64,000 bases of DNA from NCBI GenBank assembly GCA_016793465.1, contig JAEUJW010000089.1:62001-126000 (forward strand), in the 5' to 3' direction. The number at the start of each line of letters is the position of its first letter. Positions within the stretch are counted from its first letter, which is position 1. The stretch is from Myxococcales bacterium (GTDB taxonomy: Bacteria > Myxococcota > Polyangia > Nannocystales > Nannocystaceae). Made by a program: the position numbers and the translations under genes. The notes under the pieces are model-generated. The model ran no database searches and was not told the DNA's origin. It saw only the letters and a list, made by a program, of their open reading frames with translations. Below, one piece after another: positions 47,884-54,225 of the stretch.

Positions 47884-50523
47884 ATGCTCCGCGCGCTCAC
47901 CACCGCCGACGACTCGGCCCGGGGCCTGGAGGACGAGCCGACCCCGGGCGGCGGCGCCGCCGCGATCGCGCCGCCGGCGCGGATCGGCCGCTTCGAGGTG
48001 CGCGGGGTGCTCGGCGCCGGCGGCATGGGCGTCGTCTACGCCGCGTACGACCCGGAGCTCGCGCGCAGGGTCGCGGTCAAGGTGCTGCGCGAGCGCCAGG
48101 CCGGGCGCGAGGATCGGGCCTGGCGCGAGGCCCGGGCGCTCGCCCGGCTGGCCCACCCCAACGTCGTAGCGATCTTCGAGGTCGGCCGCCACGACGGGCG
48201 GCTGTTCCTGGCGATGGAGCTCGTCGAGGGCGAGCCCTGCGACGTGTGGCTGAGGGGCCGGGCGCGCGCGCCCGGCGAGGTCCTCGAGGTGTTCTTTCAG
48301 GCAGGTCGGGGGCTGGCCGCGGCCCACGGCGCCGGCATCGTCCACCGCGACTTCAAGCCGTCCAACGTGATCGTCGCCGTCGACGGGCGCGCGCGCGTGG
48401 TCGACTTCGGGCTCGCGCGGGGCCTCGGCGGGCGCGCCGAGGCGGCCGCGGCGGACCGGGACGTCGCCGCGGACGTCGACATCACCCTGACCCGCGCCGG
48501 CGGGCGGCCCGGGACCCCGCGCTACATGTCGCCCGAGCAGCGGGAGGGGCTGGCGATCGACGAGCGCAGCGACCAGTACGCGTTCTGCGTCGCCCTCTTC
48601 GAGGCGCTCGCCGGCGACGTGCCCGACGCCACCCGGTCGCACCCGGTGTTCGCGCGCCGTCCGCTGCGCCGGCTGCACCGGGCGCTGGTGCGCGGGCTGA
48701 GCGCCGACCCCGCGGCGCGCTACCCGACGATGGCGGCGCTGTGCGCCGCGCTCGAGGCGGCGATGCGACCGCGGCGCTGGCCGCTGGCGGCCGCGGTCGC
48801 GGGCCTCGTCGGGTCGGCGGCGCTCGGGCTGCTCGCGCTGCGCCCGCCCGCGGTCCGCTGCGACGGCGGCGACCGGCGCGTCGCCGAGGTGTGGAGCGAC
48901 GCGCGGGTGGCCCGCTTCGCCGCGGCGATCGCCGGCGGCGACGCCGACGCGCGGGCGACCTTGACCCGCGCCGTCGAGACGTACCTGGGCGAGTGGTCCG
49001 GCGTGTACACGCGGGTCTGCGAGGCGGCCGCGCGCGGCGAGCACTCGTCGGAGCTGCGCGACCTGCAGATGACGTGCCTCGACCAGCGCCTGCGCGACCT
49101 GGACGCGGTGCTCACGCTGCTCGAGGCGCGGCCGGCCGGCGGCGGCGAGGTGTCGACCGCGCTGTCCCGCGTGCCGCCGCCGGAGAGCTGCGCCGAGGCG
49201 CAGGCGCTGATGCGACGGGCCGCGCCGGCGCTCGAGCGCGAGCACCCCGACCACCCCGCGCTCCTGCGGCGGCTCGCGGAGGCCAAGGCGCTGGTGCTGC
49301 TGGCGCGCGTCGACGAGGCCGAGGCGGTCGCGCTCGCGCTGGCGGAGGAGGCCGGCGCTCGCGGGCTGGCGACGCTCGTCGGCGAGGCGCACCTGCTGGT
49401 CGGGCAGGGGCTCGTCGACATCGGCCAGCCGCGGGCGCGGGAGCGCCTGACGACCGCGCTGCTGCACGCCCGCGCCCACGGGCTCGAGGACCTCGCGGTG
49501 CTCGCGTCGGCGGCGCTGGTGCGGTGGTCGGCGATCCGCGCGCTCGACCCGGACGACGCCCGGCTGTTCGCCGGCCTCGCCCGCGCGGGGCTCGAGCTGA
49601 CCGGCGACGACGGCCTGCTCCGCGCCGAGGTGCTGCAGTCGCTCGCCAAGCTGCACTGGCTCGAGGGGGACGTCGAGCGCATGTTGCCCATGCTCGCCGA
49701 GGCCCGCGAGCTGCTGGCGCGGCGGCTCGGCGAGCGCCGCCCCGAGGTCGCGGCGGTGCTGCTCGACACCGCGGCGGCGCTCGGCCGCCTGCAGCGCGCC
49801 GACGAGGCGCTCGCGCAGCTGCTCGCGGCCAGGTCGATCTACGAGGAGCACTACGGGCCGCTGCACCCGGGCCTCGGCCGGCTGTACTTCAACCTCTCGG
49901 CCGCGTACGCCGACACCGGGCGGCTCGACGAGGGGCTGGCGGCCAACTCGCGGGCCGTCGAGCTGCTCACCGCCAGCGGGGTGCCGCCCGCGGACATCGC
50001 CGCGGCGAAGCTCAACCTGGTCGAGCTGCTGCGGCGCGCCGGTCGGGCCGAGGAGGCGCTCCCGCTGACCGTCGAGATCGACGCCGTGCTGGTCCAGGCC
50101 TACGGCCCCGACGCTCCGCCGGTCAACATGTCGCGGCTGGCGATCGCCGAGGTGCTGCACGACGTCGGCCGCGTCGCCGAGGCCGTCGCGCCCTACCGCG
50201 ACGCCTGGACGCTCCGGCGCGCCAACCTCGGCGAGGCGAGCCCGGAGACCGTCGCCGCGCGCATCAAGTACGCCCACGCGCTCGCGGTCGACGACCCCGC
50301 CGCGGCCCTCGCCCTGCTCGGCGACGTCGAGGCGCTGCCGGACGACCTGCAAGGCCTCGCCCTCCTGACGCGCGCGCAGGCGGGGGCGTCGCTCCGCGGC
50401 GATCCGGACGCCGTCGCCGGCGACGCGCGCCGGGCCCGGGCGCGGCTCTCGGGCGGCTCGGAGGTCGAGGCCGTGCTGCGGCGCGAGCTCGACGCGCTGC
50501 CGGACCACGCGAGGCCGCGATGA
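47884..50523 (+). CDS. Ser/Thr kinase with transmembrane helix and TPR-like domain
   Basis: The 879-residue protein has a complete kinase domain (about 35-290: LGAGGMGVVYAA, VAVKVLRE, HRDFKPSN, VDFGLARG, GTPRYMSPEQ). A transmembrane segment lies at about 300-320, and roughly 550 residues of helical TPR-like repeats follow (YFNLSAAYADTGRLDEGLAA; LLEARPAGGGEVS). The HRDFKPSN form is common in myxobacterial kinases. Together with the FHA activator 2 bp upstream it forms a two-gene signalling unit: membrane sensing by TPR, phosphorylation, then FHA-dependent transcription. The last step is inference. Confidence 0.92.
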   Translation: MLRALTTADDSARGLEDEPTPGGGAAAIAPPARIGRFEVRGVLGAGGMGVVYAAYDPELARRVAVKVLRERQAGREDRAWREARALARLAHPNVVAIFEVGRHDGRLFLAMELVEGEPCDVWLRGRARAPGEVLEVFFQAGRGLAAAHGAGIVHRDFKPSNVIVAVDGRARVVDFGLARGLGGRAEAAAADRDVAADVDITLTRAGGRPGTPRYMSPEQREGLAIDERSDQYAFCVALFEALAGDVPDATRSHPVFARRPLRRLHRALVRGLSADPAARYPTMAALCAALEAAMRPRRWPLAAAVAGLVGSAALGLLALRPPAVRCDGGDRRVAEVWSDARVARFAAAIAGGDADARATLTRAVETYLGEWSGVYTRVCEAAARGEHSSELRDLQMTCLDQRLRDLDAVLTLLEARPAGGGEVSTALSRVPPPESCAEAQALMRRAAPALEREHPDHPALLRRLAEAKALVLLARVDEAEAVALALAEEAGARGLATLVGEAHLLVGQGLVDIGQPRARERLTTALLHARAHGLEDLAVLASAALVRWSAIRALDPDDARLFAGLARAGLELTGDDGLLRAEVLQSLAKLHWLEGDVERMLPMLAEARELLARRLGERRPEVAAVLLDTAAALGRLQRADEALAQLLAARSIYEEHYGPLHPGLGRLYFNLSAAYADTGRLDEGLAANSRAVELLTASGVPPADIAAAKLNLVELLRRAGRAEEALPLTVEIDAVLVQAYGPDAPPVNMSRLAIAEVLHDVGRVAEAVAPYRDAWTLRRANLGEASPETVAARIKYAHALAVDDPAAALALLGDVEALPDDLQGLALLTRAQAGASLRGDPDAVAGDARRARARLSGGSEVEAVLRRELDALPDHARPR

Positions 50524-50703
50524 GGCCGTGATGAGGCCACGATGCGGCCACGATGCGGCCACGATGAGGACGCGCCCCCTCGCGGCGCCGCCTGCGGCGC
50601 GAGCGAGCCGACGGCCCGTCAGGCGCCGCCGTCGCGGCGACGACGTCGGCGCCGTCCGTGGCCTCGCTTGACGGTCGGGGGCGGGCCGGGGTAAGCAGCC
50701 GCG

Positions 50704-51486
50704 ATGAGGCCTTTGCGCTGGTGGGTCCCCGCGTTGACCGGGGTCGTCGCACTGCTGTCCGGGATCGTCCCGTACGCGCTGCTCAGCGCGGCGGGCAAGC
50801 TGCCGGCCGGGCTGCGCGACGACCCCTGGCCGCTCGAGGTCGTCGCGGTCGCGGCCGCGGCGGCCACGCTCGGGCTGCTCGTCGCCGCGTACCGGCAGAG
50901 GCGAGCGCGCGCGGTGGCCACCGTCGCCGCGCTGCTGGCCACGCTGTCGACCGCGTTCTTCCTCGCCATGGTCCATGTCTTCAGCTACGAGCTGCCGCCT
51001 CCGCCGCAGGAGCTGGCGATCGGCAGCGCGGCCCCCGAGTTCACGCTGCCCGACGAGGCCGGCCGACCGGTGACGCTCGCGTCGCTGCAGGGCCACCCGT
51101 CGCTGCTCGTGGTCTACCGCGGCGCCTGGTGACCCTTCTGCAGGTCTGAGCTCGCCGGTCTGGCAGAGCACGCGCACAAGTTCGAGGCCGCCGGGGTGAA
51201 GATCGTCGGCATCAGCGTCGACTCCCCGGAGGAGTCGGCCAGGCTCAAGCAGGAGCTGAGCCTGAATTTTCCGCTGCTCTCCGATCGCGACGGGCGGGTG
51301 ATGCAGCGCTTCGGCCTGGTCGACACCACCGAGTTCGCCGGCGGGGGCTACGCGCGCCCGGCGGTGCTGCTGCTCGACGCGGCGGGCGTGATCCGCTGGG
51401 CGATGTTCACCGAGAATTTCCGCGTCCGCGTCCACCCGGACGCGCTGCTCGCGGCGATCGAGCGGCTCGACCCGCCGGCCCGCTGA
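50704..51486 (+). CDS. Peroxiredoxin-like selenoprotein with in-frame TGA (Sec143)
   Basis: The frame from ATG 50704 to 51486 has 260 residues if the TGA at 51130-51132 is read as selenocysteine. The N-terminal half holds three hydrophobic helices (about 8-30, 46-62, 70-90). A thioredoxin-fold domain follows: IGSAAPEFTLPDEAGRPVTL, SLLVVYRGAW, [TGA], PFCRSELAGLAEHAHKFEAA, then VKIVGISVDSPEESARLKQE and FPLLSDRDGRVMQRFGL. AhpC/TSA relatives read YRGAWCPFC here, so the TGA replaces the peroxidatic Cys and gives a U-x-x-C pair with Cys146. The frame after TGA is intact and conserved. A SECIS-like hairpin follows. A recent nonsense mutation is the alternative, but it would be a coincidence at that one codon. 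Confidence 0.8.
51133..51168 (+). promoter_or_regulatory. Candidate bacterial SECIS element
   Basis: Hand folding pairs UUCUGC (51136-51141) with GCAGAG (51163-51168), one G-U pair included. Above an internal loop, CUG (51146-51148) pairs with CGG (51156-51158), again with one wobble, leaving the loop AGCUCGC. The loop has a G at position 2 and starts 16-17 nt after the UGA, as expected for bacterial SECIS. The core UGCAGGUCUG is also found in the E. coli fdhF element. Confidence 0.55.
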
Positions 51487-51604
51487 GCGCCGGGCGAGCG
51501 CATCACCTCGCCGCGCGCGTCTGCTCGACCTCCTGCCGGCGTCCGCATCCGCGACGCCGCGCCGCCGCCGAGGCAGGCCCGGCGTCGCGTGTACAATCGC
51601 CGCC

Positions 51605-52396
51605 CTGCACGCCGTCGACCTCGCGCAAGGGCCTCTCGACCTCGCCGCGCTGCAGGGCGCCCGCGCCCTCGCGCTGAACGCCGAGGCCGTCGACCCCGCC
51701 AGCCTCGCCGCCGCCCTCGCCGCGCTGCGCGACGTCCGGAGCCTCCGCGCCCTGCACCTGCGCTCGCGGGTCCGCGCGATGCCCCTCGCGCTCACCGAGC
51801 TCCGCGGTCTCCAGGCCCTCGCGCTCGTCGACCCCGATCTCCCCGGCCTCCCGCGCGAGCTGTCCCGCCTCACGCGCCTGCGCAGCCTGCGGCTCGCGCT
51901 GTTCCACCTCGGCTCCCTCCCGCACGGGTTCGGCGGGCTCGTGCGTCTGCGCGAGCTGGCGATCGAGTCGCACCACCTGTGCGGTCTGCCCGACGAGCTG
52001 CGCGCGCTGCAGGCCCTGCGCTCGCTGACGCTGCAGCTGCCCCACGTCTACGTGCACGACTGGGAGCGTCCCGCCCACGTGCCGCCGCGCTTCACCCAGT
52101 CGCTCGCCGACCTGTTCGCCCTGCTCGCCGCCCTCCCGCGCCTCACCTCGCTGACCCTCGGCGAGGACCACAGCTACGCCATGCCCGGCGCCGTGTTCGA
52201 CCGCCTGCCCCCCGAGTTCGGGGGCCTGCAAGCCCTCGAGAGCCTGACCCTCGAGCACGTCTCCCGCGTCGGCGCGCCGCACGGCGTCGTCATGCCGGCG
52301 CTCCGACAGATACGGACGTGCTACGCCGGCTTCGACGCGACCGAGGCCGAGCTGCGGGCGATCTTCCCGAACGCCGACCTCTCCGGCGGTCGGTGA
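51605..52396 (+). CDS. Leucine-rich repeat protein, start codon unclear
   Basis: Coding signal runs to 52396 with about eight leucine-rich repeats (LTELRGLQALALVDPDLPGL; LPRELSRLTRLRSLRLALFH; LPDELRALQALRSLTLQLPH). The first standard in-frame start is ATG 51779, but clear LRR sequence lies upstream in the same frame (LHAVDLAQGPLDLAALQGAR), back to about 51605, where only CTG is available; GTG 51589 is out of frame. TACAAT at 51592-51597 could be a -10 box. Either a CTG start is used or the gene lost its 5' end. It is probably a cytosolic protein-binding protein of unknown role. Confidence 0.6.
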   Translation: MHAVDLAQGPLDLAALQGARALALNAEAVDPASLAAALAALRDVRSLRALHLRSRVRAMPLALTELRGLQALALVDPDLPGLPRELSRLTRLRSLRLALFHLGSLPHGFGGLVRLRELAIESHHLCGLPDELRALQALRSLTLQLPHVYVHDWERPAHVPPRFTQSLADLFALLAALPRLTSLTLGEDHSYAMPGAVFDRLPPEFGGLQALESLTLEHVSRVGAPHGVVMPALRQIRTCYAGFDATEAELRAIFPNADLSGGR

Positions 52397-53634: not shown

Positions 53635-54225
53635 CTACGGGGCCTCGTCCTCGGCCTCGTCCTCGTCGGGCGTGCCGTCGTTGTCGTCGTCCGGGTCCTC
53701 GGCGTCGTCGTCGCCGTCGTCGTCCTTGTCGTCCTTGTCGTCCTTGTCGCCCTCGTCCTCGGCGTCGGGCGTGCCGTCGTTGTCGTCGTCGTCGTCGTCG
53801 GCGTCGGGCGTGCCGTCGTTGTCGTCGTCGTCGTCCTCGGCGTCGTCGTCGCCGTCGTCGTCCTTGTCGTCCTTGTCGTCCTTGTCGCCCTCGTCCTCGG
53901 CGTCGGGCGTGCCGTCGTTGTCGTCGTCGGCGTCCTCGTCGTCCGCCTCGCCGTCGTTGTCGTCGTCGTCGTCCTCGGAGTCGTCGACGCCGTCGTCGTC
54001 GACGTCGTCCTTGTCCTCCTCGTCCTCGGAGTCGTCGACGCCGTCGTCGTCGTCGTCGTTGTCGCTGTCGTCGTCGACGCCGTCGTTGTCGTCGTCCGGA
54101 TCCTCGGGGTCGACGATGCCGTCGGCGTCACGGTCGGTGACGGGGTCTCCGGTCGTCGCGTCACATCCGGCGATGGCGAGCGAGAGCGAGCAAACAAGGG
54201 TCGACGTCAGCTTGCGAATCAACAT
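53635..54225 (-). CDS. Asp-rich repeat lipoprotein (thrombospondin-3-like calcium binding)
   Basis: The 196-residue protein has a lipoprotein signal (STLVCSLSLAIAGC, Cys21). The mature part is an almost pure Asp/Glu/Gly/Asn repeat of DxDxDG(I/V/T) type (DRDADGIVDPEDPDDDNDGV, DDDNDGTPDAEDEGDKDD), like thrombospondin type 3 calcium-binding repeats. Long internal duplications are present: a block of about 100 bp recurs with a 138-bp offset. Extreme acidity suggests a calcium- or metal-binding surface layer. It is followed by no obvious partner. Confidence 0.75.
   Translation of the reverse strand: MLIRKLTSTLVCSLSLAIAGCDATTGDPVTDRDADGIVDPEDPDDDNDGVDDDSDNDDDDDGVDDSEDEEDKDDVDDDGVDDSEDDDDDNDGEADDEDADDDNDGTPDAEDEGDKDDKDDKDDDGDDDAEDDDDDNDGTPDADDDDDDNDGTPDAEDEGDKDDKDDKDDDGDDDAEDPDDDNDGTPDEDEAEDEAP
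53690..53940 (-). repeat. Duplicated block, 138-bp offset, in the Asp-rich gene
   Basis: Two copies of a roughly 100-bp block made of GTCGTC, CTTGTC and GGCGTCGGGCGTGCC elements start near 53701 and 53839. They encode the same acidic peptide unit. The DNA is a low-complexity tandem array and likely to vary in length between strains. Confidence 0.7.

What the first reader, a model, noticed from the sequence alone, without database searches (positions are those of the whole stretch)
50704..51486. Peroxiredoxin-like selenoprotein: TGA replaces the peroxidatic cysteine
The frame stops at TGA 51130-51132 exactly where relatives read YRGAWCPFC. It continues intact for 118 further codons of conserved AhpC/TSA sequence, giving a U-x-x-C motif. 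A hairpin with a G in the loop and suitable distance from the UGA follows. Standard gene callers would split this gene or call it broken. An N-terminal three-helix membrane anchor on a selenocysteine peroxiredoxin-like protein is unusual.
Basis: partly seen in the sequence, partly recalled or inferred. Interest (0 to 1): 0.88.

Follow-up and report, generated by a model that had tools for sequence, protein, structure and literature searches.

The report
Membrane-anchored selenocysteine peroxiredoxin-like protein
A gene that looks cut in half by a stop codon almost certainly reads that codon as the rare amino acid selenocysteine, giving a membrane-tethered redox enzyme of a known general type whose many relatives are recorded in the protein collection searched mostly as cut-off front halves.

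Summary
An in-frame TGA at 51130-51132 lies inside one AhpC/TSA domain, and 117 codons follow with unchanged coding signal. The selenoprotein reading is strongly supported. Of 133 listed homologues, 130 end exactly at this codon, down to about 30% identity; a full-length relative (P0002) has Cys there. In another phylum (Armatimonadota), 21 distant homologues carry TGA at the same column followed by xxC. A tight G-loop hairpin follows in 21 of 22 TGA forms, window included, against 1 of 23 Cys forms (rules set after seeing the data). tRNA-Sec was found in 16 of the 18 carrier genomes. One part is wrong: the TGA does not replace the peroxidatic cysteine. In peroxiredoxin alignments it falls on the Thr/Ser of T/S-x-x-C, and the peroxidatic-type Cys is retained as C146. 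This is a Prx-like UxxC selenoprotein, a kind published in 2005. What appears new is a large subfamily with three membrane helices, its redox domain predicted outside the membrane. The window's own hairpin is not significant alone, and its genome was not available, so selA/B/C/D are untested.

The parts
50704..51486 (+). whole gene: 260 codons plus stop, Sec at codon 143
   Evidence: Translation with TGA read through; PF00578 across the TGA; 53% identity over 98% of its length to full-length Cys homologue P0002
50722..50790 (+). membrane helix 1 (residues 7-29)
   Evidence: AlphaFold2 helices 7-19 and 21-29; hydropathy 10-28
50827..50898 (+). membrane helix 2 (residues 42-65)
50908..50979 (+). 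membrane helix 3 (residues 69-92); the positively charged stretch before it (YRQRRAR) suggests N-in, C-out
   Evidence: topology is inference by the positive-inside rule
51019..51399 (+). AhpC/TSA (peroxiredoxin-like) domain, residues 106-232
   Evidence: peroxiredoxin matches in PDB by sequence and fold
51130..51132 (+). TGA read as selenocysteine, first residue of the UxxC motif
   Evidence: 130 of 133 listed homologues end here; Cys in P0002, P0005, P0006; TGA at the same column in 21 Armatimonadota homologues
51139..51141 (+). Cys146, the only ordinary cysteine of the protein; aligns with the Cys of the peroxiredoxin T/S-x-x-C motif
51150..51169 (+). candidate bacterial SECIS hairpin, 7 bp with one bulge, loop GGUCU at 51157-51161, -9.0 kcal/mol
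   Evidence: fits the published bSECIS limits but is not significant on its own
51484..51486 (+). terminal TGA stop
   Evidence: 18 of 22 coding-like ORFs of the window end in TGA

Best explanation
The gene encodes a membrane-anchored Prx-like selenoprotein. UGA 143 is decoded as selenocysteine with the help of a hairpin just downstream. Three helices tether a peroxiredoxin-fold domain that probably lies outside the cytoplasmic membrane. Most likely Sec143, placed like the nucleophile of thioredoxin, attacks a peroxide or a disulfide, and Cys146, the only ordinary cysteine, resolves it as a Se-S bond that a partner then reduces. Shown here by computation: architecture, conserved stop position, Cys/Sec exchange, hairpin in UGA relatives. 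Inferred: Sec insertion in this organism, topology, chemistry and partner.
For: Domain and coding signal run through the TGA. Identity to the Cys homologue P0002 is 59% just before (residues 97-142) and 65% just after the site (144-200). 130 of 133 listed homologues stop at exactly this place, including relatives at 98% and 89% identity (P0010, P0011) and others down to about 30%. In Armatimonadota, 21 distinct UxxC forms in 18 genomes have TGA at the same column. The tight hairpin is present in 21 of 22 UGA forms against 1 of 23 Cys forms; with the published looser limits, 22 of 22 against 9 of 23. tRNA-Sec is over its cut-off in 15 of 18 carrier genomes in the phylum scan, against 139 of 273 others (Fisher p 0.007); a laxer search adds a 16th at 52.3 bits. 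AlphaFold2 model pLDDT 90.4, pTM 0.81, peroxiredoxin fold. The internal TGA is not a reassigned codon: 18 of 22 coding-like ORFs of the window end in TGA.
Against: The window's genome is not held, so selA, selB, selC and selD are untested; the window has no tRNA genes. The window hairpin is not exceptional, and 129 of 150 randomly chosen plus-strand TGAs of this 75% GC window pass the loose model. No DNA of a close orthologue could be fetched, so for the anchored family I know that a stop is there, not that it is TGA. Two of the 18 carrier genomes (G022, G078) have no tRNA-Sec over the cut-off, and in the laxer search that added G035, 5 of 14 control genomes were over the cut-off against 3 in the phylum scan. 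The tight hairpin rules were set after I had looked at the sequences, the UGA and Cys sets are not random samples, and related sequences are not independent.
Confidence: 0.88

Rival explanations
1. The TGA is a true stop: a pseudogene or sequencing error in this genome.
For: The genome's Sec machinery is untested and the window hairpin alone is not significant.
Against: A stop is at the same codon in 130 of 133 listed homologues; reading frame, codon signature and conservation persist for 117 codons; distant homologues in another phylum have TGA at the same column.
Confidence: 0.03
2. The short 142-residue membrane protein is the real product and the downstream half is a separate or regulatory coding segment.
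For: For 130 of 133 listed homologues the database entry is only the front half.
Against: The TGA falls inside one Pfam domain, between the two redox positions of a UxxC motif; the Cys homologue P0002 is continuous; the front half alone would lack most of the modelled peroxiredoxin fold.
Confidence: 0.02
3. UGA is reassigned throughout in this organism (for example to Trp or Cys).
For: The codon lies inside a conserved coding frame.
Against: 18 of 22 coding-like ORFs in the window, and this gene itself, end in TGA.
Confidence: 0.01
4. It is a selenoprotein, but it works as a peroxidase in which Cys146 attacks the peroxide, as in classical peroxiredoxins, and Sec143 only resolves it.
For: Cys146 aligns with the Cys of the peroxiredoxin T/S-x-x-C motif, and the nearest solved folds are peroxiredoxins (Bcp4, an AhpC-type Prx, BcpB, AhpE).
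Against: The Pro and Thr/Ser of the PxxxTxxC motif are replaced by R139 and U143 (alignments); residue 143 sits just before helix 144-155 like the thioredoxin nucleophile (the comparison is recalled).
Confidence: 0.25

Closest known systems
Prx-like UxxC selenoproteins (Sargasso Sea 'Prx-like protein'; GOS 'Prx-like 1', pfam00578; 'Prx-like thiol:disulfide oxidoreductase' in a 2026 review)
   Same: AhpC/TSA domain with a thioredoxin-like UxxC in place of TxxU; Cys homologues exist (PMC1088965 passages; PMC2398784 passages; PMC13188914 passages)
   Different: The window protein has a three-helix N-terminal anchor; the passages I saw do not mention one ('transmembrane' and 'membrane' do not occur in the held text of PMC2398784)
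CXXC PRX-like proteins (PRX_like2 in PMC3514251)
   Same: CXXC in a peroxiredoxin-related domain, second Cys equated with the peroxidatic one, no full peroxiredoxin catalytic triad (passages)
   Different: Sec instead of the first Cys; membrane anchor
Sec peroxiredoxins with TxxU
   Same: PF00578 family, Sec in the active-site loop
   Different: Their Sec is three residues downstream (L063, L067, L069, L071)
ResA/TlpA-type membrane-tethered thiol:disulfide oxidoreductases
   Same: Redox domain with a CxxC-type motif; ResA is among the PDB sequence matches; that ResA is membrane-tethered is recalled
   Different: The closest folds are Bcp/AhpE-type peroxiredoxins; three helices rather than one (single-helix ResA anchor is recalled)

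Membership tests
Bacterial Prx-like UxxC selenoprotein | AhpC/TSA (PF00578) domain | tested here: met
   118.4 bits, cut-off 26
Bacterial Prx-like UxxC selenoprotein | In-frame TGA at the first position of C/UxxC, Cys in homologues | tested here: met
Bacterial Prx-like UxxC selenoprotein | bSECIS hairpin within 16-37 nt of UGA with a G at loop position 1 or 2 | tested here: inconclusive
   Present in the window at 24 nt, but common by chance at this GC; convincing only across the UGA relatives
Bacterial Prx-like UxxC selenoprotein | selA/selB/selC/selD in the genome | not testable with these tools
   No genome held for the window; in relatives, tRNA-Sec over cut-off in 16 of 18 carrier genomes; selA, selB, selD were not searched in them
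Bacterial Prx-like UxxC selenoprotein | Selenium in the protein | not testable with these tools
   needs mass spectrometry or 75Se labelling
Classical peroxiredoxin | PxxxTxxC peroxidatic motif | tested here: not met
   R139 and U143 stand where Pro and Thr/Ser are; only C146 is kept (the motif's role is recalled)
Classical peroxiredoxin | Peroxiredoxin fold | tested here: met
   Foldseek ranks 1-6 are Bcp4, an AhpC-type Prx, BcpB and AhpE, TM-score by target length 0.85-0.90
Sec peroxiredoxin TxxU | Sec at the peroxidatic position | tested here: not met
   TGA is three codons upstream of that position
NCBIfam models SelL_rel_redox, WAxxUGC_long, peroxi_PrxU | Score above the curated cut-off | tested here: not met
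   50.3 of 120, 39.6 of 300, 38.8 of 270 bits

The most novel reading that the evidence does not exclude
A large, mostly unannotated subfamily of three-helix-anchored, outward-facing Prx-like proteins uses Sec as its normal state (one anchored Cys form against about 130 stop-truncated relatives in these searches). It may live in aerobic GC-rich soil bacteria (lineage guessed, not tested), where a 2026 review says selenoproteins are rarely retained (PMC13188914 passage), acting as a membrane-surface selenium redox system.
Probability: 0.4. Interest if true: 0.65.

Novelty: new variant of a known kind. Interest (0 to 1): 0.55.

Why it matters
More than a hundred related entries in the protein collection searched are front halves only, so automatic annotation has lost this family's active site. 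Recognising it adds a membrane-tethered architecture to the known Prx-like selenoproteins. It also makes a testable case for selenium-based redox chemistry at the cell surface, and it gives an example where gene-caller truncations at one shared codon are far stronger evidence than a SECIS hairpin in a GC-rich genome.

Tried and rejected
Own-genome search for Sec machinery: no genome held. Window scan for RNA families and tRNAs: none. Genome-contig scan with the protein gave only 4 distant hits, and viral contigs none. Plasmids by tblastn: 254 records, none covering 80% of the query. The anchored subfamily was sought with the N-terminal profile in 31 and then 291 Armatimonadota genomes and in 3 other genomes: in the listed matches none began before profile position 48, so the first helix was never covered; one weak match began at position 16 (G006, E 1.1e-5, frame of 471 codons) and was not followed up. 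DNA of close orthologues was therefore never reached. One distant UGA form (L059) has a hydrophobic N-terminus that I judge to be about three helices by eye; I did not run the hydropathy script on it.

Rejected as evidence: the loose bSECIS model for the window itself (129 of 150 randomly chosen TGAs pass); minimum-energy shuffles of the window hairpin. Promoter/terminator scan of 50400-51900: nothing. P0105, a homologue predicted in a shifted frame: working back from its residues (my reasoning), the codon at the site ends in A, so it is not a Cys codon and could be TGA, but TAA, TCA or TTA are not excluded; I use it as weak support only. Other TGA-split frames in the window were listed but none lies at an evident redox motif; not pursued. 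The source lineage was guessed as Myxococcota (GC 75%, FHA/sigma-54 and Ser/Thr kinase genes) but not tested.

Full report
What is there. The frame 50704-51486 is open apart from TGA at 51130-51132 and its terminal TGA. A single AhpC/TSA match (residues 106-232) spans the internal TGA. GC by codon position stays .75/.55/.96 before and .73/.46/.94 after in the same frame. TGA is the usual stop here: 18 of 22 coding-like ORFs of at least 150 codons end with it, so the code is not reassigned.

Homologues. Three protein searches were made (with the read-through protein, with a four-row profile of the front half, with a 26-row full-length profile). I set aside the query P0001, P0002 and four other hits (P0005, P0006, P0008, P0009), which leaves 133 distinct listed homologues. 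Of these, 116 end in YRGxW and 14 more at the same place with variant residues, 130 of 133 in all. The three exceptions are two entries without a recorded contig that end earlier (P0007, P0102) and one predicted in a shifted frame (P0105). Limits: each search scored only about 8000 candidates sharing most words, and one search matched 146 proteins but listed 120. In all three searches the only anchored full-length Cys form listed was P0002, with CPFC at the site; the soluble CPFC proteins P0005 and P0006 came.

DNA of relatives. No genome is held for the window, and the one genome-contig scan gave four distant hits. In 291 genomes of that phylum a profile search plus fetched stretches gave 21 distinct homologues with TGA at the window's column and Cys at +3, in 18 genomes, and 23 with CxxC. 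The material was the 30 loci returned (8 of them UxxC) plus all 21 further listed places marked with a TGA inside (13 UxxC, 4 TxxU, 4 with the TGA elsewhere or outside the match) and 4 other places. More matches exist that one search did not list. Duplicates (L032/L074, L026/L077) were counted once; rows with Thr at the site, and L076 (Cys at the site but no Cys at +3), were left out of both sets. tRNA-Sec was over cut-off in 154 of 291 genomes; in that scan 15 of 18 carriers had it against 139 of 273 others (Fisher p 0.007). A laxer search of the other three added G035 (52.3 bits) but not G022 or G078; its controls were over the cut-off in 5 of 14 genomes against 3 of 14 in the phylum scan.

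Hairpin. With the published limits (loop 3-9 nt, stem 4-16 bp, G at loop position 1 or 2, 16-37 nt from UGA, -7.5 kcal/mol; PMC13188914 section 5, read in full), as coded in my script, 22 of 22 UGA forms and 9 of 23 Cys forms have one. With a tight version chosen after seeing the sequences (at least 6 bp, loop 3-6 nt with (N)G[G/U], 19-28 nt), the count is 21 of 22 against 1 of 23; the missing one, L024, has a hairpin at 16 nt. Synonymous recoding predicts on average 23% and 2%. For the window alone the hairpin proves little: 63 of 425 plus-strand TGAs have a tight one, 1134 of 2000 recodings have one and 161 are at least as stable.

Where the Sec lies. The five printed PDB alignments (four distinct proteins) set the Cys of T/S-x-x-C on C146 and its Thr or Ser on codon 143, with R139 opposite the motif's Pro. 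The TxxU forms found in passing carry the TGA three codons later. The Sargasso Sea paper describes the same contrast, UXXC Prx-like against TXXU Prx (PMC1088965 passages). C146 is the only ordinary cysteine (which also lists 143 and 261, both TGA), so a Se-S pair 143-146 is the only possible internal redox couple.

Architecture. AlphaFold2 (TGA read as Cys, 40-row alignment) gives pLDDT 90.4 and pTM 0.81 with helices 7-29, 42-65 and 69-92, a thioredoxin-like domain, and residue 143 just before helix 144-155. Foldseek ranks Bcp4, an AhpC-type Prx, BcpB and AhpE first. A rough hydropathy count over the 130 homologues that end at the site gives 3 hydrophobic segments in 108, 2 in 17 and 1 in 5. 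The positively charged loop between helices 2 and 3 suggests N-in, C-out (inference). Several Armatimonadota UGA forms begin with what look like signal or lipoprotein peptides (read by eye), which fits an outside location.

Known or new. UxxC Prx-like selenoproteins have been known since 2005, counted at 225 as Prx-like 1 in GOS (PMC2398784 passages), and listed in a 2026 review (PMC13188914, passages). In this library, searches for myxobacteria, Myxococcota or Myxococcales with selenoprotein or selenocysteine returned 0, 2 and 1 papers, none relevant by title, and a search for membrane-anchored, selenoprotein, peroxiredoxin and bacterial selenoproteins (three of four terms) found 21 papers, of which the 10 listed show none describing this by title or abstract start. 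That is not proof that it is unpublished. I file it as a new variant (anchored subfamily) of a known kind. The 0.88 confidence is for the selenoprotein reading with this architecture; the order of chemical steps is less certain, as the fourth rival shows.

Noticed in passing
   Followed up: partly
P0104 and P0127-P0139: A side group of anchored homologues ends FRG[SA]T or similar instead of YRGxW at the same place, so the Trp before the stop is not fixed.
   Followed up: no
window 26488: Another TGA with coding-like sequence in frame on both sides (415 and 1185 codons); looks like two adjacent genes in the same frame, with no evident redox motif.
   Followed up: no
window 53635-54225, minus strand: Very acidic Asp-rich repeat protein with no Pfam match.
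   Followed up: no
L059 (unnamed Armatimonadota genome G035): A UGA-containing UxxC homologue whose N-terminus also looks like a multi-helix anchor, 31% identical to the window protein.
   Followed up: partly
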